Positions 38,056 to 61,260 of a DNA stretch of 64,000 bases are shown one piece after another; positions within the stretch are counted from its first letter, which is position 1; every line of letters starts with the position of its first letter. This stretch comes from Chlorella sorokiniana (Eukaryota; Chlorophyta; Trebouxiophyceae; Chlorellales; Chlorellaceae), in NCBI GenBank assembly GCA_025917655.1, contig CP084610.1, forward strand, positions 744,001 through 808,000, in the 5' to 3' direction. The translations under genes and the position numbers were made by a program. Below the pieces are notes generated by a model that saw nothing but the letters and a program-made list of their open reading frames with translations, did no database searches and was not told where the DNA came from.

Positions 38056-38967
38056 GTCCACGCTGGCGGTTGTCCCGGCCCAGGAGGGCAGGCTTCTCCA
38101 TCTTTCCTTCTCCTATGCAGGCCTTCCCTTTTCAATCCTTGGCTGTTATGCGCCCACGGAGGCGTGCAACCGCCCTGCATTTTTCTCCAGGTCCCTTGCT
38201 GCAGCAATCCCCACCGACCGCCTTGTGCTCATGGCTGGCGATTGGAACCACGTTTCTGATCCCTTGGACGTTGCCGGCGCTACCGCCCTTTCACGGCATC
38301 GATTTGCCGGCGCGGAGGAGTTTGCCTGCGGTGGCGGCTCAGCGCAACCTGGTGGATGTGTGGTGGCGGCTCCACCCGGCGGCACGTGCAGTCACGCACG
38401 TAGCCTCCGGGGCTGCAGGCGGGGCGCGCTTGGACCGTTGGTATGCGGCAGCGCCCCTGCTTGCAGGGATTAGCAGCGCAGGCATCCTTCATGGCTTCCC
38501 TGGCGATCACCTCGCTGTGGATGTCCATTTGTCGCCCCCTTCCGTCGTCCCTGCTGGCCCTGGGCGCTTCCGCCTCCCTGACCACTTCCACTCCGACCCA
38601 GATTTTGTCGCTTTTGTCCGCCAGCACATCCACACCTTTGCAGAGGAGCACCCCGTGCAGCCTGGCGCCCGCCGCGCTTATTGGGTTGCAATCAAGGCCC
38701 ACCTCTCCACCCACGTCGTGGCATTCACTGCAGCCCGGCGGCGGCAAGCGGATGCCACGAGGCGCGTTGTTGGCTGCAGTGGAGGACGCCATGCGAGCAT
38801 ATCTTAGCCAGCCCAGCCACCCAGCCACGCTTGGCCTGCTCCGACGTGCGACCGCAGCCTTGAGGGAGCATGACGCGGCAGCAGAGCAGCGGCGGCGCGA
38901 ACAGCTGGACGTCCTTTGGCATTGGAACCATTTCTCGAGCAGAGCGTGTCATCCTTGCGCAGGGGCC

Positions 38968-38999
<32 letters not shown>

Positions 39000-39348
39000 A
39001 CATGTGGTCCGAAGACCGTCCTTTGGCATTGCTTCGGCGAGCGCCCTACACGCTGGTTTCACATGTTGGACCGCAGCGCCTTACCAAACCAGCCCCTGGC
39101 AGAGCTCTTACACCCATCTGACCCAGCAGCCCCAGCAGCAGACCTCAGCACACCCGCGGGCCGTGAACTTGCCTCAACCCGGGCGGTGGCCTTCTTCTCG
39201 GCGGACAGCCCTGTGGGCCTCTTCCACTCGGAGGCTACCGACTCCGCAGCAGCGGGGCGGTTGTTGGACGCGCTGGATGCCACCCTGTCCCCTGACGAGG
39301 CGGCTGCCACTCTAGGACCTGCTGGTGGGCCCATCACTGATGCTGAGG
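38056..39348 (+). mobile_element. LINE Z endonuclease and RT N-part in plus orientation (head-to-head with the Z to its left)
   Basis: Reads LLHLSFSYAGLPFSILGCYA and LVLMAGDWNHVSDPLD (38,225), an APE-type endonuclease, then HFHSDPDFVAFVRQHIHTFA and the region before the RT (39,018-39,348: [20 protein letters not shown], then ITDAEV). The U6 copy at 38,925 interrupts the frame. The head-to-head junction at about 38,055 (GGGGTCCACG/CTGGCGGTTG) is found identically at 42,560 and, reversed, at 53,157, so all three descend from one event. Confidence 0.85.
38925..39017 (-). pseudogene. U6 snRNA retrocopy inside LINE Z ORF2 (copy 1)
   Basis: Reverse complement of a full-length U6: the 5' hairpin GGTC-TTCG-GACC, the invariant AATTGGAACGATACAGAGAA, TTAGCATGGCCCCTGCGCA and AGGATGACACG, to GAGAAATGGTTC. 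It is flanked by 14-bp duplications GTCCTTTGGCATTG (38,911-38,924 and 39,018-39,031), so it arrived by target-primed reverse transcription. It adds 107 bp and breaks the host LINE frame. No upstream U6 promoter is visible. Confidence 0.93.
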
Positions 39349-42900: not shown

Positions 42901-43471
42901 GCACGTAGCCTCCGGGGCTGCAGGCGGGGCGCGCTTGGACCGTTGGTATGCGGCAGCGCCCTGCTTGCAGGGATTAGCAGCGCAGGCATCCTTCATGGCT
43001 TCCCTGGCGATCACCTCGCTGTGGATGTCCATTTGTCGCCCCCTTCCGTCGTCCCTGCTGGCCCTGGGCGCTTCCGCCTCCCTGACCACTTCCACTCCGA
43101 CCCAGATTTTGTCGCTTTTGTCCGCCAGCACATCCACACCTTTGCAGAGGAGCACCCCGTGCAGCCTGGCGCCCGCCGCGCTTATTGGGTTGCAATCAAG
43201 GCCCACCTCTCCACCCACGTCGTGGCATTCACTGCAGCCCGGCGGCGGCAAGCGGATGCCACGAGGCGCGTTGTTGGCTGCAGTGGAGGACGCCATGCGA
43301 GCATATCTTAGCCAGCCCAGCCACCCAGCCACGCTTGGCCTGCTCCGACGTGCGACCGCAGCCTTGAGGGAGCATGACGCGGCAGCAGAGCAGCGGCGGC
43401 GCGAACAGCTGGACGTCCTTTGGCATTGGAACCATTTCTCGAGCAGAGCGTGTCATCCTTGCGCAGGGGCC

Positions 43472-43503
<32 letters not shown>

Positions 43504-44429
43504 ACATGTGGTCCGAAGACCGTCCTTTGGCATTGCTTCGGCGAGCGCCCTACACGCTGGTTTCACATGTTGGACCGCAGCGCCTTACCAAACCAGCCCC
43601 TGGCAGAGCTCTTACACCCATCTGACCCAGCAGCCCCAGCAGCAGACCTCAGCACACCCGCGGGCCGTGAACTTGCCTCAACCCGGGCGGTGGCCTTCTT
43701 CTCGGCGGACAGCCCTGTGGGCCTCTTCCACTCGGAGGCTACCGACTCCGCAGCAGCGGGGCGGTTGTTGGACGCGCTGGATGCCACCCTGTCCCCTGAC
43801 GAGGCGGCTGCCACTCTAGGACCTGCTGGTGGGCCCATCACTGATGCTGAGGTTATGTTATGTTATGTTACACTGGTTTAACGTCTGCCTTCGGGACAAT
43901 CACTGTCCCTCGCAGACGGGGCATAGGGCCCATGCAACTCAGACGCAAACGGGCCCATCCCTGTTGCAGCCGAAGCCAACAGACAGGAACGGGCTGGCCC
44001 TCGAAACCGGGAACTCATCAGGCCAGCAGCGCACGGGAGTCAAAGCCCGGGCCCGCGCACCCCCATCGCGACGAGGTGAAGATGCAAGATGCAGCAAGCA
44101 CACGGGATGGCAAGCAAGCACGCAAGCAAAGCATGATGACAAGGATGCAAAGCAAGGCAAACTGCGAAAGAGTCAGAAAAGGCAAGGAAGAATCCAACGC
44201 AAGCCGGGCACGGGCTGGCAGGGGCCGCGAGAACGGCGACGTAGGCCCACTCAAGCCGGGGTCGCCTCGCGCTGGGGCTGGGGCTCAGACTCGCCGCTGC
44301 GGGTGTCGTCTCCAGCCAACGACAGACGGTAGCAGCGGTGCACAAAGCTAGCCACCGCCACCGATTCCTGCGCAAGGAACTGTGCCAAGGTTCCCTGCCC
44401 CGCCAACGGTGCAGGCTGTGTTTCCTGAC
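39926..44429. repeat. Tandem-duplication unit 2 (4,504 bp)
   Basis: Near-identical copy of unit 1, offset about 4.5 kb. It begins with a poly(T) of 31 and has the complete Z 3' UTR (39,957-40,970), the Z ORF2 C-terminus (40,964-41,994, reverse), mini-Z (about 42,013-42,199), the head-to-head junction (about 42,560), the plus-strand endonuclease (42,575-43,415), U6 (43,429-43,521), the RT N-part (43,522-43,852) and the B insert (43,853-44,409). Differences from unit 1 are mostly one-base changes in G or C runs (for example near 41,834 and 42,959), so the duplication is very recent or the copies are being homogenised. Confidence 0.9.
43429..43521 (-). pseudogene. U6 snRNA retrocopy inside LINE Z ORF2 (copy 2)
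   Basis: Same insertion as copy 1, with the same 14-bp flanking duplications (43,415-43,428 and 43,522-43,535). It was carried here by the tandem duplication and not by a new retrotransposition. Confidence 0.93.
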
Positions 44430-45794: not shown

Positions 45795-46345
45795 CATTGG
45801 CCGACGGTTCCCCGGCCGCTCGGCTCCTGCGTTGACTTGTCCCTGTTCCCATGGCTCCCTCCAAAGACGCTTCCACACTCGATTTCCTCGCCCCTTTCGA
45901 GTGGCTTGCACCTTCCCTTTCCATGGCTCCCCTCCTTTTCTTAGCCTGCCCCCTCCCGGACGCCCCCCTTCTCCCCGTCCCAAGACGCCCCCCTTTTTTG
46001 TCTTGGCCTGGTTGCCTTTGCGTCTCTTCCGTGGTGGGTTGCTCCATCCTCGCCTCGGGTCTTTCGGTTCTTTGCCTTGCCCTGTTGTGCCGCTTTCGCC
46101 CCAGTCTGGCGGTTGCCGGGATCTCGCGTATCATCTGCTTTCACGACGACATACCGAACACACATACACACACAAAACAAAAAGAAAAATATCTCGCGTA
46201 CCACCCCCGTGACCGCATGCCCCATCTTGTTGTCACATGCGCGTTCATACGCTCTTTGTTTGGCTGCCTCATCGGTCATGATGCTTCGTGGCTTTGGCCT
46301 ACCTACGCTTCTTGGGATCCCCCACATCTCAAGTGTAAGAGCACC

Positions 46346-46388
<43 letters not shown>

Positions 46389-46473
46389 TGGGGCATGCGG
46401 TCACGGGGTGGTACGCAGATTGTATTCTTTTTGTTTTGCTCCTTCCATTCTTGCAGGCGGCGGCAGTTGGGCG

Positions 46474-47095
46474 TGTTGAAATACGATCAACGTCCCTATA
46501 TGGCACCACAAATGGGCACATACTAATTAACCTCCGGGTTGGCGCTTTTAACAGGTTATGGGCCCCAATGCGCTAGATGGGCGCGCTGTCACATACACCC
46601 ACAGATTGTGGGTTCGATTCCCATCACGGGACATCCAGGTTTCCGGCCTGTAAAACGTTTCTCCACTCGGAAGCGGGGGAGCAGCCCCGCCTTCACGATC
46701 GTGGTTAGGTACGAAGCGAGCATACGGAACGTTGCTCGGGGGAGTGTTGAAATACGATCAACGTCCCTATATGGCACCACAAATGGGCACATACTAATTA
46801 ACCTCCGGGTTGGCGCTTTTAACAGGTTATGGGCCCCAATGCGCTAGATGGGCGCGCTGTCACATACACCCACAGATTGTGGGTTCGATTCCCATCACGG
46901 GACATCCAGGTTTCCGGCCTGTAAAACGTTTCTCCACTCGGAAGCGGGGGGAGCAGCCCGCCTTCACGATCGTGGTTAGGTACGAAGCGAGCATACGGAA
47001 CGTTGCTCGGGGGAGTGTTGAAATACGATCAACGTCCCTATATGGCACCACAAATGGGCACATACTAATTAACCTCCGGGTTGGCGCTTTTAACG
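46474..47095 (+). mobile_element. Tandem miniature LTR retroelement (TRIM-like): LTR-internal-LTR-internal-LTR
   Basis: Three 80-bp terminal repeats (46,474-46,553; 46,745-46,824; 47,016-47,095) start TGTTG and end in TTTTAACA or a near variant. They separate two almost identical 191-bp internal regions. A 5-bp duplication GGGCG flanks the whole (46,469-46,473 and 47,096-47,100). Directly inside the first LTR is GGTTATGGGCCCCA, a primer site complementary to the initiator-Met tRNA anticodon arm. A purine tract CGGGGGAG precedes each downstream LTR. It is non-coding. The tandem form is what LTR-LTR recombination gives. It sits in the right arm of a Z palindrome, so it is younger than that arm. 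Looks whole. Confidence 0.88.
46570..46630 (+). other. tRNA-like A/B-box segment in the miniature element (repeated at +271)
   Basis: GCGC-TAGATGGGC-GCGC (46,570-46,586) resembles a D arm or A box, and GTGGG-TTCGATT-CCCAT (about 46,608-46,624) is a T arm with a perfect B box GGTTCGATTCC. The spacing is that of a tRNA. The acceptor stem and anticodon arm do not pair, so it is not a functional tRNA gene. The second copy has its B box at about 46,882. Confidence 0.6.
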
Positions 47096-47886
47096 GGGCG
47101 GCCGGCGGCGGCAGCGGCGATGGCGGCAAGTGCGTGTGTAGTGGCGCGGCGGGTGATGGGCGTTCGCCACCGTGTGTGGCAACGTGCCGGCGGGGGGCCG
47201 CGCCCCCGCCCGGCTTGCCTTGAGGCACCCGCGCCGCCGGTCCTAGCGGGCCGGCAGCAGCACACTGCGGAGCGCGTACATGCCCTTCTTGTCGGTAGTC
47301 GTGTGCCCGCCGGCCCTCGGCTTGCCCCGTCCTTGCTCTTTGCATCCATTGGCCGACGGTTCCCCGGCGCTCGGCTCCTGCGTTGACTTGTCCCCTGTTC
47401 CCATGGCTCCCTCCAAAGACGCTTCCACACTCGATTTCCTCGCCCCTTTCGAGTGGCTTGCACCTTCCCTTTCCATGGCTCCCCTCCTTTTCTTAGCCTG
47501 CCCCCTCCGGACGCCCCCTTCTCCCCGTCCCAAGACGCCCCCCTTTTTTGTCTTGGCCTGGTTGCCTTTGCGTCTCTTCCGTGGTGGGTTGCTCCATCCT
47601 CGCCTCGGGTCTTTCAGTTCTTTGCCTTGCCCCGTTGTGCCGCCGCTCCCTGGTCTGGCGGTTGCCGGGATCTCGCGTATCATCTGCTTTCACAGCGACA
47701 TACCGAACACACATACACACACAAAACAAAAAGAAAAATATCTGCGTACCACCCCGTGACCGCATGCCCCATCTTCTTTGTCACATGCGCGTTCGCGCGC
47801 TGTTTGGCTGCCTCATCGGTCATGATGCTTCGTGGCTTTGGCCTACCTACGCTTCTTGAGATCCCCGTCTCAAGTGTAAGAGCACC

Positions 47887-50856: not shown

Positions 50857-52227
50857 TCAAGGCCCAGGTGAATGCCGAGGTGGCGGATGGACTCTGACGG
50901 CGAAGGGAGCGCACGCCAGTGACGCCACACAAGCGCGTTGCAGGGTCGATGGTGGACTGATCGCCAAACAAGATGCCCTTGCACTTGCGCAGGTTGAGCC
51001 TGGCCTGGGTGGCTGCGCAAAAGTCGGCCACAGGCCCCGCCAGGGCGGCGTGCGCGTCACGCGGGGCCAAGACATGGATGGTGATATCATCTGCATGTTG
51101 GTGGGAGATTGGAGCAGGGGAGCCCCAGGCAGCAGCAGGGGCCTGCAAACGCCCTGCTGCTGCGCACGGCGCAAGGAAGCTGCGAGGGGTTGTGCAGCAA
51201 TGAGATACAACAAAACGCTAAGGGGGCTGCCCTGTTGCACACTGCGTGCGAGTGGGAAGGCTGGGGTGTAATAGCCGTTCAGGGACACCATGGCAGTGCA
51301 CCCGGACAGCATCAGCTGCACCCAACGCACAGCAAGCTGCGGGAAGCGCATGCGGCGCATGACATCAAAAAGCCAAGGGCGATCAACCCTGTCGTACGCC
51401 TTTTCAAAGTCCAGGAAGACGATGCAGCCAGGCGCATCCTGCTCTCTCAAGTACTCCACCTCCTCAAGGTGCAGCAGGACATTGTCGCCAATCCAACGGT
51501 CGGGTAAGAAGGCGGTCTGGGTGGGGTCGATGACGGAGAGAAGGGGCCCAGCGAAGAGGGCCGACAACACCTTAGCTAGCAGGCGGTAGTCACAATTCAG
51601 GAGGGTGATGGGGCGGTGGGAGGCAAGCTGCCGGGTGTCAGCGGTGCCAGGCTTGGGCAGCAGGACAATGAGGCCAGCCGTAACCTCAGAGGGCAGGAAC
51701 GGCTCCACCCCAGCTGCCAGGCTACCCTCATCAGCAGCGGCAGCAACAGCCAAGGCCTCATCAGCCATGCCCAGGAAGAACGGGCGCAGCTCAGACCAGA
51801 ACGTCACGTAGAAGGAATACGGCAGACCATCCAGGCCAGGGCTGGTGCCAAGTGGCAGGTCAGGAAACACAGCCTGCACCTCAGCATCAGTGATGGGCCC
51901 ACCAGCAGGTCCTAGAGTGGCAGCCGCCTCGTCAGGGGACAGGGTGGCATCCAGCGCGTCCAACAACCGCCCCGCTGCTGCGGAGTCGGTAGCCTCCGAG
52001 TGGAAGAGGCCCACAGGGCTGTCCGCCGAGAAGAAGGCCACCGCCCGGGTTGAGGCAAGTTCACGGCCCGCGGGTGTGCTGAGGTCTGCTGCTGGGGCTG
52101 CTGGGTCAGATGGGTGTAAGAGCTCTGCCAGGGGCTGGTTTGGTAAGGCGCTGCGGTCCAACATGTGAAACCAGCGTGTAGGGCGCTCGCCGAAGCAATG
52201 CCAAAGGACGGTCTTCGGACCACATGT

Positions 52228-52259
<32 letters not shown>

Positions 52260-52311
52260 GGCCCCTGCGCAAGGATGACACGCTCTGCTCGAGAAATGGT
52301 TCCAATGCCAA
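50857..52311 (-). CDS. LINE Z reverse transcriptase ORF (palm and fingers)
   Basis: Open for 484 codons in reverse; its first codons are antisense U6 sequence. It covers RT blocks 0-4: [70 protein letters not shown] and [16 protein letters not shown]. The frame then departs from the coding one before the catalytic Asp-Asp pair, which is in the overlapping frame at about 51,080 ([10 protein letters not shown]). It is part of the Z element and not a host gene. Confidence 0.85.
52210..52302 (+). pseudogene. U6 snRNA retrocopy inside LINE Z ORF2 (copy 3, inverted)
   Basis: The same 93-nt U6 as copies 1 and 2, here in plus orientation, with flanking CAATGCCAAAGGAC at 52,196-52,209 and 52,303-52,316. 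The 5' hairpin, the ACAGAGA box and the catalytic AGC triad (in GATTAGCATGG) are all intact. The U-rich 3' end is missing. Confidence 0.95.
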
Positions 52312-53157: not shown

Positions 53158-53475
53158 CCAGCGTGGACCCCACCGTGTGGGGCTTTGGCAGCGTGGACCT
53201 CTTGGGGTTCACCGTTAAGGCAGCCACACAGCGGCGCATCCACCTGGCAGCCCGGCAGCGCTGCGGCCCGCGATACCTTCCTTCGGCGGGCTGCAGGCCA
53301 GCCCTGTGGCGGCAGCCTGCAGATGAGCCAGGCCCGTCTGCTGCCGCCACGGGCTTGCAAGCGTTGGAGCTACGCTGGGCCTCCTCCTACGACACGCGGC
53401 TTCACGAGCGGGTCATGTCTCGCCGGCGGGCAGCAGAGTGGGAGGTGGATCTCCTGCCGTGTCAGCGCCCGGGCC
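53158..53475 (+). mobile_element. LINE Z ORF2 C-terminal segment, plus orientation, left of the copia insertion
   Basis: Reads VDPTVWGFGSVDLLGFTVKA, TQRRIHLAARQRCGPRYL and MSRRRAAEWEVDLLPCQRPG. It continues on the other side of the LTR element at 59,212 (GGGCCAAAGC...). Its left edge is the shared head-to-head junction with the reversed endonuclease. Confidence 0.85.
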
Positions 53476-53828
53476 TGTTGGATGGAGGTAGTTACAAAGA
53501 GCGCAAGAGTATGAAAGAGGGCGCAGAATGGCGCTAAATAGGCTGGAGCAGCACAATGCTACTATTGGCATTATTCCGGCATATGCGGGGTAGTGTTTGT
53601 GGTAGTGGCATGACGGCGGGGCTCAGGTGCACAGAAATGCATGGCATGGGGGTCAATCAACTTAGAATAAAGTGGGAAAGCATAATCGAAGGGTGTCTGA
53701 GCATATTAGGCGGGTCAAGCTCATGCATGACGAAAGGGTGTCCACGTCAGCAGCGTCTGCCACGTGGCAGCTGGGGAGATGTGCTGCGGGTGTGCAGGCT
53801 GGACATGTGGCTCAGCCACATCTCAACA
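53476..53828 (-). repeat. copia LTR (3' LTR)
   Basis: 353 bp, starts TGTTGG and ends CTCAACA. It contains a G-box core (CCACGTGG at about 53,759) and, near its end, an inverted repeat ATGTGGCT-C-AGCCACAT. Almost identical to the other LTR. Confidence 0.95.
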
Positions 53829-56800
53829 CTCCCACGCAGGCTGCACAGCCGCTGCACTCAGGCGATGCCCATAGCTGCGCGGCAGTACTTGAACTTGTTG
53901 GTGGGCACGGGCTTGGTCAGGATGTCAGCAACCATGGCATCGGTGGGGATGTAGCTGAAGTTGACTTCGCCACGGATGACGCGCTCGCGTGCAAAGTGGT
54001 GGATGATGTCGATGTGCTTGGAGCGAAGGGAGATGACTGGATTCTTCAGCATGTGAATGGCTGATTGGCTGTCTGACTTGATGTCGATGCAGGCGATGTG
54101 CAGGTCCAGGTCAGCGAAGAGCTTGCGCAGCCACAGTGCTTCCTTGACGGCGGAGGCGGCTGCCATGTACTCAGCTTCTGTAGTAGATGAGGCGACGGTG
54201 GGTTGCAGGCGTGAGCTCCAGGTGATGGCGCCGTTCTTGAAGGTGAAGACGTAGCCGGTGGTGGAGCGGCGGGTGTCGATGTCGCCAGCATGGTTGGCGT
54301 CGCAGTAGGCGTCGAGGGTAGCGTTGGACGGGCTGAAGATGATGCCGTAGTCAGGGGTACCAGCGAGGTAGCGCAGCACATGCTTGGCTGCAGTCCAGTG
54401 GGAGGTGGTGGGCTTGGACATGTAGCGGGCCAGCGCTCCCACGGCTTGGGCGATATCGGGTCTGGTGCAGGATGCCAGGTACATGAGGGAGCCGATGAGT
54501 GTGGAGTAGGGGTGCTCTGAGATGTCCAGTGGGTCTCCGTCGGCGGTGAGCTTGAAGGCGATGCTTGAGGGTGTGTCGAAAGGCTTGGACTTGTCCATGC
54601 TGAACTTGGACAGCAGGTCGGTGGTGTGACGGGTCTGGGTCAGCTTGATGGTCTTGGAGGCGCGGTCTCGCATGATGTCGATGCCCAGGAAGAAGGAGGC
54701 TGGGCCCAGGTCGCGGGTGTCGAAGGCGGTGGCTATCTGCTTCTTGATGGAGCTCAGCATGGATGTGTCGGCGGTGATGACCAGGATGTCGTCGACGTAG
54801 ATGAGCAGGTAGACTGGTGGAGAGGACAGCTTGATGAAGAGGCCTGGGTCAGCAGCTGACTCGGTGAAGCCCATGGACTCGATCTCGGTCTTCAGGGTGC
54901 GATGCCAGGCTCGAGAAGCTTGCTTGAGTCCATAGAGGGCCTTGTTCAGCTTGCATGCTTGGTCATGGTTGCCGTTGTGGTAGCCAGGAGGTTGCTGAAT
55001 GTAGACGTCTTCGTCCAGCTTGCCGTTGAGGAAGGCGGTCTTGATGTCCAGCTGGTGAATCTCTAGGTCCAGGTCGGCAGCAATGGCCAACACGGTGCGC
55101 AGGGTGGAGTACTTGGAGACAGGTGCAAACACTTGGTCGTAGTCGATGCCTTCGCGTTGGTGGAAGCCTTTGACGACGAGGCGGGCCTTGTAGCGCTCGA
55201 TGTTGCCGTTGGCGTCGCGCTTCTCCTTGTAGACCCACTTGACTGGAATGGGCTTGACGCCAGGAGGTGTAGGTTGCAGGGTCCAGGTGTTGTTGGCGGC
55301 CAGGGAAGCGATCTCCTCGTCCATGGCGGAGCGCCAAAGGTCGGCGTTGGGAGATTGCAGGGCTTCCTCCAGGGTGGTAGGCTCAGCTGTTGCGGTGGCG
55401 ATGTTGATGGTGGCTCGAGAGGTGATGCGGTATGCGTCGTCCTGCCACTGGCTGGCTGGGCGGCGCGCAGCGGCACGCTCGGTGCGCCGCAGGGCGATGG
55501 GAGGAGAAGGTGGGTCTTCAGGCTCGGCTGGTGCTCCCACGGACTCGGTGTCGCCGGTGTCATCGTTGTCGATGAGGGAAATGGTCTCTGGCAGGATGGG
55601 CTTGGGCAGGTTGGAGCTGGCCTCATTGAAGGTGACATCGCGGCTGATGACGATGGAGCCGTTGTCCAGCAGGATCTTGTAGCCTTTGGTGTTGGTGGGG
55701 TAGCCGATGAAGCGGCCGGGCTCGCTAACTGCATCGAGCTTGGAGCGTAGTGCTGTTGGAATGTGGGCGTAGGCACGGGCGCCAAAGATGCGCAGGTGGG
55801 AGAGGTCGGGCTTGGTGCCGTGAAGCATCTCGTAGGGGGTGACGTCTTGGGCAGATGTTGGCGAGCGGTTGCGCAAGTAGTTGGCGGTGACGATGGCTTC
55901 GGCCCAAAGATGCTTGGGCAGGTTGTACTCGGCCAGCATGGGGCGCGCCTTGTCCAGCAGGGTGCGGTTGAGACGCTCAGCCTTGCCGTTTTGCTGGGGC
56001 GTGTAGGAGACGGTGGTCTCTGACTGGATGCCCTTGGACTTGTAGAAGGTGTCCAGGTCGTTGTTGATGAACTCGCCGCCGTTGTCAGAGCGGATGCGCT
56101 TGACGGTGTGGCCGGTCTGACGCTCCAGCAGGTTGACGGTGGTCTTCAGGAAGTCAGCGGCGTCAGACTTGCGGCGCAAGGGAGCGATGTGAGAGTAGCC
56201 AGTGTAGTCATCCAGGATGGTCATGAAGTACAGGCTGCCACCGTGGGAGGGGACTGGCATGGGACCGCAGAGGTCGGTGTGCAGCAGCTCCAGAGGCTTG
56301 TGGGTGAAGGAGGTGGAGGCGTTGAACGGTTGGCGATGTTGCTTGCCCAGGGTGCAGGCGTCGCAGGTGTCTGCGCTGGTGGCTTTGAAGTCAGAGGGGT
56401 CGATGCTGATGCCGGTGGCCATGGTGGTGAGCTTGGCCAGGTTGTCGTAGCCGAGGTGGCCGAGGCGGCGGTGCCACAGGTTGGGTGTGTGGGCGCGTGC
56501 AGCGTAGGCGATGGTGAGGGCGTAGGCGGCGGAGCCTGGCTCGAGGCAGCGGCTGGCCAGGTGGTAGGTGTTGCTGGTGGCGTCGGTGTAGCCGTAGGCA
56601 ATCATGTGGTTGCCCATGGAGATCTGGCAGCCGGTGCGGTCAAAGGAGAAGCTGATGCCTTTCTGGGTGGCTCGGTTGACGGACAGGAGGTTGTCGGCGG
56701 CGTCTGGCATGTAGAGCACGTCGGTGAGCTTGATCAGGTTGTCAAGGTTGGGCTGCAGGTACGCGTCGCCGATGAGGGTGGCCTCTCCTACGCTGCCGTT

Positions 56801-57924
56801 GCCGAAAGTGATGCGGATGGGCTGCGGCGCCGGGCGCAGGTTGGTGAGGAGTTGCTGGTGTGGTGTGATGTGCCGGCTCGCTCCAGTGTCCACGATCCAG
56901 TTGTCGCTGATGGTGTTGGAGGTGGTGGCGGCGGTGAAGGCGATGGCGCTGTACTGGGCGTTGACGCTGCGGTTGGAAGGCGGCGGGCGTTGGTTGAAGC
57001 GGCGGGCTTCCATGTCGCGGCGCTTCTTGTTGCACTCGTGGGCGTAGTGGCCAGGCTTGTGGCAGTAGAGGCAGGTGCCTTCGGCGTAGGCGCGGGCATC
57101 GCGGGAGGAGCGCTCGTCGACGCGGATGCCGAAGGTGCGTGGTGGGCCAAAGCTGGGTGGTGGACCGTTGAAGTTGGGCGGCCGCATGCGGGGGTTGCTG
57201 CTGCGGGGCCACTGCCGCGAGGGCCGTTGTTGCGGTTGATGCCGTTGATGTTGCGGGGAGCGCCATTGCTGTTGGAGTGCCGGTCGTCGCGGCGAGGATG
57301 GAAGGAGGCCATCAGGGCTGAGTCGGAGCTGCGGATGACGTCGGGCTTGGCGCGGCGGTGCTCGGCTTGCAGAAGGTGGGGCAGGATGTCATCCACGGTG
57401 AATGTGCCGGCGGAGGCGGTGGTGGTTTCGATGACGGTGACGACTGTGTCGAAGGTGGAGGGCAGGCCAGCCAGGACTTGGCACGCCACGTCGATGTCTT
57501 CGACCTTGTGGCCGGCGGCGTTGAGCTGGTCTTGCAGGGCCTTGGCACGGTTGGTGAAGGCGGTGACGGTCTCGGTGGAGGCCATCTTCAGAGAGTTGAG
57601 CTCACGGCGCAGTTGGAGCTTGCGTGCGAAGGACTTGGCGGCGAAGATGCCTTGCAGAGTGGTCCAGGCTTGGTTGGCCGTGGTGCAGCGCAGGATGGTT
57701 GGCTGGTGGTGGGGCTTGACGAGGAGGCCGATGTAGGAGAGGGCGAGCTCGTCTGCCTTGATGTCCTCGGGAGTTGTTGGGGCCTCGGTGCTGACGACGG
57801 TGTGCCAGCACTTCTTGGTGGTGAGGAAGAACTTCATGTTGGCTGCCCACACTGTGTAGTTGTCCCAGTCCAGCCGCTCAATGGACATGCCGTCTGTCGC
57901 CATGCTGTCCACGCTTGTGTGCAA

Positions 57925-58856
57925 CTGCTGACTGCTGACGGCTGGCGGCCGCTAGCAGGCACCTTGTGCCTCTGCTAGTGCGTGCTCGGAGGTGCCGCGG
58001 CAAGGGGTGCCGCAGATTGTGCCGCCGGAGATGGCTGGCGGAAAGGTGGGGAAGGTCGGTGCCTAAGAATAAGTAGCCGGTACGTGGCACACGAGGCCAG
58101 GCACCGAACGGGGAGCTGCGTGCCACACGTGGACAGCACAGCCCAGGCACCACCTTTGAGTAAATGTAACAGAAGTGGAGGAATAGACGGGAAAGGGGGC
58201 AGGACAGATGTGGATGGCAGCGGCGCTCGACGGCGCTAGGGCACTGCCTGAAGGAGAGTGCCCAGGGGGCAAAGGCAGCGGCGCACTTAGGCGCTGGGGC
58301 ACTGCCAATAACGGAGGGGCCAGAGGGGCGGAGCAGCGGCGCGCGGAGGCGCTAGGGCGCTGCTTGCACTTATCTTAAGTGGTTGTGTCAGCGTAGAGCT
58401 ACGGCAGTGGGTTGAGGCAAAGTGGAAGTTTAGTAACTTGGCGGGAGGCGGGGTATCGAGCTGGTCACAAGTGACCCAACTCGCTTACTCAGCTGCCACA
58501 CAGCTGCTCAAGCAGCTGTCTCTTTGCGAGCAGGTGCTGTCGAAAGCAGATTTAGGCTGCCGGAAAGCAGAATTGAGCTGTCGGCTGCTGGCTGGCAGCT
58601 AGGCAGCAAAAGGCGCTGGCTGTGCGAGCGAAAGGCGGCGCTGTGCGAGCGAAAAGGCGCTGCTATGTGCGAAATGTGCCGCAAGCAAAGGCGGGCTTAG
58701 TCTGAGAGGCTTCGGTCGAAGGCGCCGTTCCGGAGGTCGAGGCGGAAGTGCTCGCGAGTGGTGCGAGGGGCGCTGGCAGCGAGAAAAGGCGTCTGGGGTG
58801 ACGGCAAGAGCGTGTGCCGGACTCAAGGGCAGAGGAGGGAGCTGGGGCCCATAACC
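57925..58856 (-). other. Untranslated leader of the copia element
   Basis: About 930 bp between the 5' LTR and gag without a long open frame of its own. It contains three tandem degenerate units of the type GGCGCTNGGGCACTGCC (about 58,220-58,370) and several GTGCGAGCGAAA-like repeats at 58,620-58,680. A packaging or dimerisation role is possible but not shown. Confidence 0.5.
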
Positions 58857-59211
58857 TGTTGGATGGAGGTAGTTACAAAGAGCGCAAGAGTATGAAAGAG
58901 GGCGCAGAATGGCGCTAAATAGGCTGGAGCAGCACAATGCTACTATTGGCATTATTCCGGCATATGCGGGGTAGTGTTTGTGGTAGTGGCATGACGGCGG
59001 GGCTCAGGTGCACAGAAATGCATGGCATGGGGGTCAATCAACTTAGAATAAAGTGGGAAAGCATAATCGAAGGGTGTGTCTGAGCATATTAGGCGGGTCA
59101 AGCTCATGCATGACGAAAGGGTGTCCACGTCAGCAGCGTCTGCCACGTGGCAGCTGGGGAGATGTGCTGCGGGTGTGCAGGCTGGACATGTGGCTCAGCC
59201 ACATCTCAACA
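58857..59211 (-). repeat. copia LTR (5' LTR)
   Basis: 355 bp, nearly identical to the copy at 53,476. For the element, which reads right to left, this is the 5' LTR; the half-tRNA primer site lies directly inside it. Confidence 0.95.
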
Positions 59212-61260
59212 GGGCCAAAGCAAATGCCGTCTTTGAAGCAGCGGCAAATGCTGAGAAAGGAAATCTGCGTACCGTCCCCGTGACTGCATGCCCCATCTTG
59301 CTGTCACATGCGCGTTCGCGCTGCTGTTTGGCTGCCTCATCGGTCATGATGCTTCGTGGCTTCGGCCTACCTACGCTTCTTGAGATCCCCCACGTCTCAA
59401 GTGTAAGAGCACCCCTCAAAAAAAAAAAAAAAAAAAAAAAAACTGCGCGAGGCAGACCTGCCCCGTGAGCAGTACACTGTGGCATACCGCGTGTTGCATG
59501 GGTGCCTGTATGTGGGCGCCTTCCTTTGCCACATTCGGGTCGTGCCAGCGGCAGATGCGTTGTGCCAGCACGGTGATTGTGCGGCAGCAGCGGATCCGCC
59601 CCTTGATGGGCTGACCCATGCATTCTTGCTCTGCCCGCCGTGGCCGCTGCTGCCGAGTGGGTCTGTCGTGTCTTTGCGGCTGTCTCGGGTGTGCGCCCTC
59701 CTCCCCTCTGTCCCCGTGTCTTTCTTGCAGATGAGCATGCCACTTGGGCCCCACCCGCCCGTCTTCGCCACGTATGGGCACACCTGCGCACCGCTTACCT
59801 CTACGCTGTGTGGCAGATGCGCGGCCGGCGAACTCTTGCGGGCCAGCCCATCTCGCCGGCCAGCGTGTGCGGTGCCACGGTAGCAGCGGTGCTGGCTGCC
59901 ATCAAGCGGGACTGGGCGCGGGCCACGCACAACATGCGCCGGCTGGATGGCACCTATGCTGAGTGGTTCCGTGGCCGCGACACCTCCCTCCGTATGGGCC
60001 AGTTCAAAGCGCGGTGGACCCACAGGGGCGCGCTTTGTGTTGTGGAGGCGGGTGCTATGCGGTTGCGCTTCAGCCTGTCCCACCCGGTGGCCGCACCAGT
60101 GGAGGGCCCTTCTGCGTCTCGGGTGCCTGCAATTGCCCCTGCGTCCTGCCTTGGTCCCTTGCCCCCTCCACGCCTGCAGCTCTCCCCTGCCTCCGCTCGC
60201 CCTGGTGGAGCCTCACCTGCGGCTCTCCCTCCTGCGGGGCCGCTGCTGAGTATGGAGCGTGAAGGCGGGGCAGCCCCTTCCAGCGGCGGGGCAGCACTGG
60301 CACGGGCTGCACCACGCGCGGGCGTCGGTTAACTCTCCGCCCTGCCCTTTTCTGGCTGGGGCCCTCCTCTTCTTTGCGGGGCGCTTTCCCACGGCCTCAG
60401 CGGCCTTCTTGTTATTTTTATACTCGACCGTGCTGCTTCCACTCCCTTTTGGGCCATGCGATACAGCCTGACTTCTGTTCATCTTTACATGCGCGCTGCT
60501 GGGGCTCCTTCCATTCTTGCAGGCGGCGGCAGTTGGGCGGCCGGCAGCGGCAGCGGCGATGGCGGCAAGTGCGTGTGTAGTGGCGCGGCGGGTGATGGGC
60601 GTTCGCCACCGTGTGTGGCAACGTGCCGGCGGGGTCCGCCGCCCCCCGCCCGGCTTGCCTTGCGGCACCCGCGCCGCCGGTCCTAGCGGGCCGGCAGGCA
60701 CACCTGCGGAGCGCGTACATGCCCTTGCTGTCGGTAGTCGTGTGCCCGCCAGCCCTCGGCTTGCCCCGTCCTTGCTCTTTGCATCCATTGGCGGTTCCCC
60801 AGCGCTCGGCTCCTGCGTTGACTTGTCCCTGTTCCCATGGCTCCCTCCAGCACGCTTCCACACTCGATTTCCTCGCCCCATTCTGAGTGGCTTGCACCTT
60901 CCCTTTCCATGGCTCCCCTCCTTTTCTTAGCCTGCCCCCTCCTGGACGCCCCCCTTCTCCCTGTCCCAGTACGCCCCCCCCTTTTTTGTCTTGGCCTGGT
61001 TGCCTTTGCGTCTCTTCCGTGGTGGGTTGCTCCATCCTCGCCTCGGGTCTTTCAGTTCTTTGCCTTGCCCTGTTGTGCCGCTGCCTGCCCCAGTCTGGCG
61101 GTTGCCGGGATCTCGCGTTTCATCTGCTTTCACAGCGACATACCGAACACACATACACACACAAAACAAAAAGAAAAAAATCTGCGTACCACCCCCGTGA
61201 CTGCATGCCCCATCTTGCTGTCACATGCGCGTTCGCGCTGCTGTTTGGCTGCCTCATCGG
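59212..61260 (+). mobile_element. LINE Z 3' half, plus orientation, right of the copia insertion
   Basis: After the copia duplication a diverged short Z stretch leads into mini-Z (59,262-59,417) with a poly(A) of about 25. The sequence then rejoins the ORF2 C-terminus at CTGCGCGAGG; about 130 bp of target are missing here compared with unit 1. The C-terminal ORF (59,479-60,332, with one frame change near 59,640) has CQHGDC, THAFLLCP, FKARWTHRGALCVVEAG and the end APRAGVG. The 3' UTR (60,333-61,258) follows and is cut at GCCTCATCGG by further poly(T) insertions. Confidence 0.85.

What the first reader, a model, noticed from the sequence alone, without database searches (positions are those of the whole stretch)
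46474..47095. Miniature LTR element with a copia-type half-tRNA primer site and a tRNA-like internal domain
Seen: three 80-bp LTRs and two 191-bp internal regions in tandem, 5-bp GGGCG duplication, purine tract before each LTR. The primer site GGTTATGGGCCCCA is the same 14 nt as in the copia element at 58,843-58,856, and it matches the initiator-Met tRNA anticodon arm, as in Drosophila copia half-tRNA priming. The internal region also has a perfect B box and an A-box-like D arm. A TRIM whose body is tRNA-derived, and perhaps Pol III-transcribed, would be unusual. It is probably moved by the copia machinery (inference).
Basis: partly seen in the sequence, partly recalled or inferred. Interest (0 to 1): 0.88.

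Follow-up and report, generated by a model that had tools for sequence, protein, structure and literature searches.

The report
Tiny retrotransposon hitchhiking on copia
A 351-letter jumping element with no genes of its own is found in some 70 copies in a probable green-alga genome, and hybrid copies joined to a full-size copia element at their shared tRNA-primer site suggest that the two are copied inside the same particle; the claim that its body is a tRNA holds for one arm only.

Summary
Window 46,474-47,095 holds an LTR-body-LTR-body-LTR array (80-bp LTRs, 191-bp bodies, GGGCG target duplication) of a TRIM family with 70 body matches held. Its 14-nt primer site is the copia one. The main result is new: at PBS boundaries (106 of 111 sites examined) 6 TRIM-LTR|copia-body and 6 copia-LTR|TRIM-body junctions (11 independent) stand beside 58 TRIM and 19 copia ones; at the PPT|LTR boundary no such swap was found beside 84 pure ones. 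One 4.8-kb hybrid has a perfect 5-bp target duplication. Neighbouring bodies in arrays are never identical (0 of 25 pairs). This fits joining of co-packaged cDNAs by plus-strand transfer at the shared PBS. The 'tRNA-derived body' is only partly supported: the T-arm/B box is near-invariant (69 of 70 bodies; 13 of 20,000 shuffles), but the D-arm/A box is no better than chance and the Rfam tRNA model does not match. Pol III is unlikely to make the genomic RNA: a start near that box leaves out the 5' repeat, and the LTR's TTTT would stop an earlier start. Closest known: TRIMs, above all Helenus (Kojima 2024), whose tRNA-like part lies in the LTR.

The parts
46469..46473 (.). left target-site duplication GGGCG
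   Evidence: repeated at 47096-47100; one search scores TSD5
46474..46553 (+). LTR 1 (80 bp, TG...CA)
   Evidence: 109 LTR matches in the held sequence
46554..46744 (+). body 1 (191 bp, non-coding)
   Evidence: 70 body matches in the held sequence, 69 places
46554..46567 (+). PBS 1 GGTTATGGGCCCCA, complementary to a tRNA anticodon arm with CAT anticodon (half-tRNA type)
   Evidence: 5'-half tRNA-like locus
46569..46580 (+). A-box-like stretch TGCGCTAGATGG (2 mismatches of 7 fixed positions; not significant)
46608..46625 (+). T-arm-like 18-mer GTGGGTTCGATTCCCATC; B box GGTTCGATTCC at 46611-46621
46738..46744 (+). polypurine tract 1 GGGGGAG
46745..46824 (+). LTR 2
46825..47015 (+). body 2 (6 substitutions from body 1)
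46825..46838 (+). PBS 2
46879..46896 (+). T-arm-like 18-mer, body 2 (B box 46882-46892)
47009..47015 (+). polypurine tract 2 GGGGGAG
47016..47095 (+). LTR 3 (last base G instead of A)
47096..47100 (.). right target-site duplication GGGCG
58857..59211 (-). 5' LTR of the copia element (TSD GGCCC at 59212-59216)
58843..58856 (-). PBS of the copia element, identical 14 nt
53829..58856 (-). internal region of the copia element: copia-type gag, gag-pre-integrase, integrase core, RVT_2
53476..53828 (-). 3' LTR of the copia element (TSD GGCCC at 53471-53475)

Best explanation
[quoted passage not shown] SHOWN: structure, target duplications, the identical PBS, similar PPT/LTR starts, arrays of non-identical units, and chimeras joined exactly at the PBS. 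INFERRED: its RNA, probably made by Pol II from a TATA-like LTR promoter (TATATGG in 92 of 92 full LTRs), is packaged with copia RNA; a cleaved initiator-Met tRNA half primes both. During second-strand synthesis a plus strand ending in the shared PBS sequence anneals to the PBS complement of another cDNA in the same particle. Between two TRIM cDNAs this gives arrays with one LTR between bodies, as in the window. Between TRIM and copia it gives LTR-swapped hybrids, which integrase inserts. The T-arm motif in the body is a conserved cis-signal or a relic of a tRNA; its role is open.
For: PBS junctions, 106 of 111 sites examined: TL|TB 58, CL|CB 19, CL|TB 6, TL|CB 6, inverted TL/CL joints through a palindromic PBS 4, other 13. 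PPT|LTR boundary: TB|TL 66, CB|CL 18, TB|CL 0, CB|TL 0 (a looser rule gave 68, 22, 0, 0), although about 11 nt (GGGAGTGTTGA) are shared there too. No two-LTR junctions in the held sequence. Composite at C2:3063145-3067914: TL, copia body, TL, TB, TL, flanked by TGTGC on both sides, inside an older copia copy. TSDs in 17 of 23 complete TL-to-TL arrays. Adjacent bodies: 0 of 25 pairs identical, median 6 differences against 8 for all pairs; several units match a body at another locus exactly. Copia domains.
Against: Five of the 23 TL-to-TL arrays lack a TSD; two of these five are parts of larger composites. Eight arrays that begin with a copia LTR showed no TSD either: seven continue upstream into copia sequence, so their outer end was not seen, but the eighth (C5:1452973-1453596, CL-TB-TL) has none. 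Only one chimera was followed from TSD to TSD, and its copia part is rearranged near the 3' end, with a switch into the last 8 nt of a TRIM body. Hybrid joints away from the PBS also exist: copia LTR 1-243 fused to the TRIM LTR (three places on C4, two of them duplicates), CL(1-185)-TB(10-189) at C10:585048, a CL/TL mosaic at C4:2321112, so the PBS is not the only switch point. Several chimeras lie in rearranged clusters with inverted or truncated ends (C5, C8). Strand-transfer order is inferred from products. No transcript, particle or cDNA was observed. The complete initiator-Met gene was not found.
Confidence: 0.72

Rival explanations
1. A Pol III-driven TRIM (TRIMp3, Helenus-like): the internal A and B boxes start the genomic RNA.
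For: Exact B box inside a T arm, 13 of 20,000 shuffles. T arm best matches nuclear tRNA-Arg(ccg), 20 of 23 nt, 2 of 2,000 shuffles as good against 19 nuclear tRNAs. 69 of 70 bodies keep the 18-mer. No TGTAA in 92 full LTRs; TTTT near the LTR end in 90 of 92 and none in 65 bodies. Precedent: Kojima 2024, PMC10886601.
Against: The boxes lie behind the PBS, so an RNA started near them lacks the 5' LTR repeat that first-strand transfer needs; a start further upstream in the LTR would meet TTTT at once. D part not tRNA-like (1,215 of 2,000 shuffles as good). No Rfam tRNA match at E<=10. Body positions 156-188 are just as invariant.
Confidence: 0.1
2. The hybrid junctions arose in genomic DNA by microhomology or recombination at the 14-bp PBS, not during reverse transcription.
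For: The copies lie in dense, rearranged clusters with apparent segmental duplications (parallel maps of C4:2.327-2.336 and 2.342-2.352 Mb).
Against: No TB|CL or CB|TL at the PPT|LTR boundary despite about 11 shared nt; if the two sites were used in proportion to length, 11 of 11 at the PBS has p about 0.002 (a rough model). None of 10 sites of other PBS-sharing sequences is joined to a TRIM or copia body. A composite with both outer LTRs intact and a TSD.
Confidence: 0.15
3. Retrozyme-like life cycle: a circular unit-length RNA is reverse transcribed by rolling circle, giving arrays.
For: Retrozymes also share only PBS and PPT boxes with their partner, and multimers are modelled for them (PMC4918200, passages). 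Unit-length RNA would fit the TTTT at the LTR end.
Against: Units of one array differ from each other (0 of 25 adjacent pairs identical), which a circle copied repeatedly would not give. No hammerhead or other ribozyme family at E<=10.
Confidence: 0.03
4. Arrays grew after insertion by unequal crossing-over between LTRs.
For: One solo LTR with TSD (CAACC) exists at C2:3075194, so LTR-LTR recombination occurs.
Against: Adjacent units differ almost as much as random copies, and some match other loci exactly. Cannot make LTR-swapped hybrids.
Confidence: 0.07
5. The tRNA resemblance of the body is chance, and the invariant blocks serve packaging or RNA structure.
For: Only about 23 nt resemble tRNA; ARAGORN finds no tRNA at its default threshold (window, element). 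CCCAC/GTGGG stems with a variable 5-nt loop suggest a competing hairpin. Other blocks are equally invariant.
Against: Shuffle tests at about 1 in 1,000; the TTCGATT loop is invariant in 65 of 65 aligned bodies, which a mere hairpin does not need.
Confidence: 0.3

Closest known systems
Helenus (TRIMp3), Kojima 2024, PMC10886601
   Same: TRIM with tRNA-like boxes; fungal families have 5-bp TSDs and a copia-shared PBS, most often to the tRNA-iMet anticodon loop; tandem arrays are noted for the zebrafish family LTR-11_DR.
   Different: Helenus carries the tRNA-like sequence in its LTRs; here it lies in the body behind the PBS, and only the T arm is supported. [quoted passage not shown]
TRIMs and tandemly arrayed TA-TRIMs (Gao et al. 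2016, PMC4717578)
   Same: Short LTRs, no coding capacity, 5-bp TSDs in the examples shown, L3I2 arrays; the table rows for Chlamydomonas and Volvox read 6 and 5 in total.
   Different: Partner identified here by hybrid junctions without LTR or body similarity beyond PBS and PPT/LTR start; in that survey 278 of 289 subfamilies had no retrotransposase-encoding relative.
Drosophila copia and fungal Copia half-tRNA priming (as cited in PMC10886601)
   Same: PBS complementary to a tRNA anticodon region, directly after the LTR.
   Different: Primer tRNA of this organism only half identified.
Retrozymes (PMC4918200)
   Same: Non-autonomous, share only PBS/PPT boxes with the autonomous partner, multimers.
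   Different: No ribozyme found; array units differ.
Cassandra (5S rRNA TRIM), and Dasheng/RIRE2 chimeras of rice (the latter recalled; only a search listing seen)
   Same: Pol III-related TRIM; chimeras taken as a sign of co-packaging.
   Different: No 5S sequence; at the two LTR boundaries the swap here is confined to the PBS side.

Membership tests
TRIM | Two short direct terminal repeats (TG...CA) around a short non-coding body | tested here: met
   80 + 191 + 80 bp
TRIM | PBS after the 5' LTR and PPT before the 3' LTR | tested here: met
TRIM | Target-site duplication | tested here: met
   5 bp in 17 of 23 TL-to-TL arrays, 4 bp in 1, none in 5
TRIM | Trans-mobilised by an autonomous LTR element | tested here: inconclusive
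   supported by hybrid junctions and one TSD-flanked composite; genomic evidence only, movement not observed
Helenus (TRIMp3) | tRNA-derived sequence within the LTR | tested here: not met
   T arm lies in the body, 46608-46625; no tRNA match in the element at E<=10
Helenus (TRIMp3) | Both box A and box B conserved | tested here: inconclusive
   B box within the 18-mer exact in 69 of 70 bodies; A box weak
Helenus (TRIMp3) | Pol III transcription | not testable with these tools
   no RNA data
Half-tRNA (copia-type) priming | PBS complementary to the tRNA-iMet anticodon arm | tested here: inconclusive
   11 of 14 nt match a 5'-half tRNA-like locus, two copies; the remaining ACC would lie behind an intron or gap and was not found
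Retrozyme | Hammerhead ribozyme in the LTR | tested here: not met
   Rfam scan of 801 bases, E<=10
Cassandra | 5S rRNA sequence in the LTR | tested here: not met
   Rfam scans

The most novel reading that the evidence does not exclude
TRIM arrays are in general built inside the particles of the autonomous partner by intermolecular plus-strand transfer at the shared primer-binding site. TRIM-copia hybrids are the by-product, so PBS-junction hybrids identify the helper element of any TRIM even when no other sequence is shared. The part about this family is what the evidence supports; generality is untested.
Probability: 0.4. Interest if true: 0.7.

Novelty: new variant of a known kind. Interest (0 to 1): 0.52.

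Why it matters
Most TRIMs have no known helper: in the 2016 plant survey, 278 of 289 subfamilies had no retrotransposase-encoding relative (PMC4717578, passage). Here reciprocal hybrids joined exactly at the primer site name the helper and point to the replication step at which they and the arrays form. The same screen can be run on any genome. It also suggests that copia particles copy several different RNAs together. The T arm inside the body is a second, weaker lead to how small parasites borrow tRNA-like signals.

Tried and rejected
Rfam at gathering and at E<=10 on the element: only a chance lncRNA match. ARAGORN at its default threshold: no tRNA in the window or the element; at laxer settings it calls tRNA-Ser/Tyr and many organelle-type shapes, judged meaningless. 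Extended antisense pairing of the body to the primer tRNA's D arm: 207 of 500 shuffles as strong, dropped. Covariation in the predicted body fold: no clear compensatory pairs, pair 50-54 broken in 28 of 65. A nuclear tRNA gene as donor of the T arm: none within 2 mismatches of the 18-mer; one hit with 2 mismatches on a small tRNA-rich contig, C15; the reversed control pattern gave 2 hits. An intact initiator-Met gene: a 17-mer with 2 mismatches and a recalled 72-nt consensus found none; the two C2 loci have no recognisable 3' half in the stretch fetched. Rolling circle and unequal crossing-over: see rivals. Literature: 10 searches, of which I saw the listings and starts of abstracts; none of the listed entries names this family or PBS-junction TRIM-helper hybrids, but the library lacks most subscription journals and several searches showed only their top rows.

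Full report
Names used: TL = 80-bp miniature LTR, TB = 191-bp body, CL = 353-bp LTR of the copia element, CB = its 5,028-bp internal region. A bar marks a junction. 'Call n' is the tool result.

OBSERVATION. The element is as described. Three TL and two TB stand in tandem at 46474-47095 between GGGCG repeats. The copia element lies on the minus strand, 53476-59211, with LTRs of 353 and 355 bp, a GGCCC target duplication and the same 14-nt PBS directly behind its 5' LTR. Pieces of its reading frames match Pfam copia-type gag, gag-pre-integrase, the integrase core and RVT_2. Gag and pol are open in different frames in this copy; I only describe this.

FAMILY. The window is part of a 38.8-Mb genome of 15 contigs; 13 of them sum to 38.61 Mb. 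The body search returned 69 places (40 of 42 candidates scored); in the stretches held, 70 body and 109 LTR matches are present, and the T-arm 18-mer search finds 70 sites with at most one mismatch, plus one with two on C15. The LTR count is a lower bound: one search scored 40 of 114 candidates, and a solo LTR fetched later (C2:3075194, TSD CAACC) is not among the 109. Of 23 complete TL-to-TL arrays, 17 have a 5-bp TSD, one a 4-bp TSD and five none, two of the five being parts of larger composites; two of the 17 (C3:2056375 and C3:2084967) look like copies of one by segmental duplication. Eight further arrays that begin with CL scored no TSD: seven run on upstream into copia sequence, one (C5:1452973) does not and has none. 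Most LTRs and many bodies are 97-100% identical to the window copy, others down to about 91% (LTR) and 83% (body), so part of the family is young.

HYBRIDS. I classified the junctions at 106 of the 111 exact 12-nt PBS cores of the genome; the other five were not fetched. Result: TL|TB 58, CL|CB 19, CL|TB 6, TL|CB 6, CL|PBS|inverted TL 2, TL|PBS|inverted CL 2, other|other 11 (ten recurrent other sequences, probably further LTR families, and one isolated site), other|TB 1 (a truncated TL), CL|other 1. One CL|TB pair and both inverted pairs are repeated by the apparent C4 segmental duplication, so the hetero-junctions are 11 independent ones. At the PPT|LTR boundary the same script found TB|TL 66, CB|CL 18, TB|CL 0 and CB|TL 0; the rest are genomic flanks or unclassified (25 other|TL, 14 other|CL, 6 other|other, 2 TB|other, 1 edge). 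An earlier, looser rule gave 68, 22, 0 and 0 with 45 unclassified. No TL-TL, TL-CL or CL-TL two-LTR junction exists in the held sequence (exact match of the last and first 10 or 12 letters). Hybrid joints at other places do exist: CL 1-243 fused to TL (C4:2327405, 2342868, 2360976), CL(1-185)-TB(10-189) at C10:585048, a CL/TL mosaic at C4:2321112. These look like template switches elsewhere and show that the PBS is the main but not the only switch point.

COMPOSITE. C2:3063145-3067914 reads TL, CB (from its first base, rearranged near the 3' end), the last 8 nt of a TB, TL, TB, TL. It sits in an older copia copy whose positions 835-839 (TGTGC) are duplicated on both sides; the gap in the middle was fetched and is CB 1499-2835. 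A hybrid with TRIM ends on both sides was therefore inserted as one unit.

ARRAYS. In 25 pairs of neighbouring bodies none is identical; the median is 6 differences, against 8 for all pairs of 65 bodies, while single units match bodies at other loci exactly. In the window, body 1 equals the body at C4:2350258 and body 2 differs from body 1 by 6 substitutions. This speaks against rolling-circle copying and against growth by unequal crossing-over.

MECHANISM. In LTR elements the plus strand that starts at the PPT runs through the LTR and copies the primer end, so its 3' end is the PBS sequence; it then anneals to the PBS complement of the minus strand (established knowledge of the retroviral/LTR pathway). 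TRIM and copia share just this 14-nt end; otherwise TL/CL and TB/CB share only chance-length words and the PPT/LTR start. If the acceptor is another cDNA in the particle, the products are B|L|B arrays with one LTR between bodies, TL|CB and CL|TB, all of which are seen; PPT|LTR swaps are not expected and were not seen. The palindromic core GGGCCC of the PBS could also let two such ends pair with each other, which would give the inverted joints. That this happened in particles is inference. A rough length-proportional model for 11 of 11 events at the PBS rather than at the 11-nt PPT/LTR similarity gives p about 0.002.

PRIMER. The PBS complement is TGGGGCCCATAACC. Two nuclear loci 19 kb apart hold a tRNA-like 5' half ending ...GGTAGCGTGTGGGGCCCATA, then unrelated sequence. 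This fits an initiator-Met gene interrupted behind nucleotide 37, but no 3' half was recognised; 400 further bases were fetched for one of the two loci. So half-tRNA priming is likely and the tRNA is not fully proven.

tRNA-LIKE BODY. Exact B box in 13 of 20,000 dinucleotide shuffles of the body; a T-arm shape in 57 of 20,000. I compared the region with the 19 tRNA genes that one search lists on C1-C13 (one search scored 63 of 450 candidates, so genes are missing). Best: tRNA-Arg(ccg), 20 of 23 nt over variable loop and T arm, reached by 2 of 2,000 shuffles; the D part alone is reached by 1,215 of 2,000. The 18-mer is exact in 69 of 70 bodies. But positions 156-188 are as invariant as 55-83 in 65 aligned bodies, so conservation does not single out the T arm. 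RF00005 does not match at E<=10. I conclude: a T-arm-like motif, probably real, and no demonstrated tRNA.

POLYMERASE. TATATGG is present in 92 of 92 full LTRs and TTTT near the LTR end in 90 of 92; TTTT is in 0 of 65 bodies; TGTAA (recalled as the algal poly-A signal) is in 0 of 92 LTRs and 54 of 65 bodies. A Pol III start set by the body boxes would fall about at the LTR/body border and leave out the 5' repeat; a start upstream would meet TTTT (general knowledge of Pol III promoters and terminators). In Helenus the boxes are in the LTR (PMC10886601). Hence Pol II is favoured for the genomic RNA; the missing TGTAA in the LTR is a point against it, and a side transcript by Pol III is not excluded.

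LOCATION. Of the 70 bodies, all but two (C2:737,371 and C11:743,829) lie in one cluster per contig; contigs C1 and C8 have one body each and C7 none. Copia copies lie in the same clusters where both were seen; the copia search scored 40 of 83 candidates and listed none on C1, C6 or C11. Chlorella centromeres consist largely of LTR/Copia and LINE elements (PMC11005252, passages). I infer, without proof, a Chlorella-like green alga and a centromeric window.

LITERATURE SEEN. PMC10886601: abstract, results, discussion. PMC4717578: section on tandem arrays and passages. PMC11005252, PMC4918200, PMC10085805: passages. Dasheng/RIRE2: search listing only, the rest recalled.

VERDICT. An ordinary TRIM in anatomy, with a variant position of a tRNA-like arm and unusually direct genomic evidence for its helper and for how its arrays form.

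Noticed in passing
window 38917-39017 (-), 43421-43521 (-), 52210-52310 (+): Full-length U6 snRNA sequences (90.5 bits); the one at 52210 lies antisense in a LINE-like frame (RVT_1 match) and the other two in similar repeats. The one at 43421 is flanked by GTCCTTTGGCATTG on both sides, so it looks like a U6 retrocopy with a target duplication of at least 14 bp that was then multiplied with its host element. They are three of the four full-length matches found in the genome, 47 of 1,970 candidates scored.
   Followed up: partly
G000 C4:2006301-2010843: A tandem row of nine U6-related matches about every 555 bp, eight of 64 bases at 48.4 bits and one full-length.
   Followed up: no
G000 C4:2327304, 2331900, 2342767, 2347842: TRIM and copia LTRs joined head to head through the palindrome GGTTATGGGCCCCATAACC; possibly two plus-strand ends paired by their self-complementary GGGCCC.
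   Followed up: partly
G000 C4:2327405, 2342868, 2360976: Hybrid LTRs: copia LTR 1-243 followed by the TRIM LTR from about base 7; copia LTR pieces ending at 235-243 recur on C12.
   Followed up: partly
G000 C2:3042758, 3047264, 3088050; C3:2056292, 2084884, 2121635; C4:2278182, 2283657, 2289127; C7:801118: Probably two further LTR families use the same PBS, two bases behind ...CAACA, and were not seen joined to TRIM or copia bodies.
   Followed up: no
G000 C2:623010 and C2:642157 (-): Two near-identical loci with the 5' half of an initiator-tRNA-like sequence ending right behind the CAT anticodon and one A, with no 3' half found in the stretch fetched; a B-box-like motif lies just upstream, so a permuted or split tRNA gene could be looked for.
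   Followed up: partly
window 46205-46231 and 46382-46408: 27-nt inverted repeat, 96% complementary, with an A-run just before the second arm, left of the element; may be ends of LINE copies in opposite orientation.
   Followed up: no
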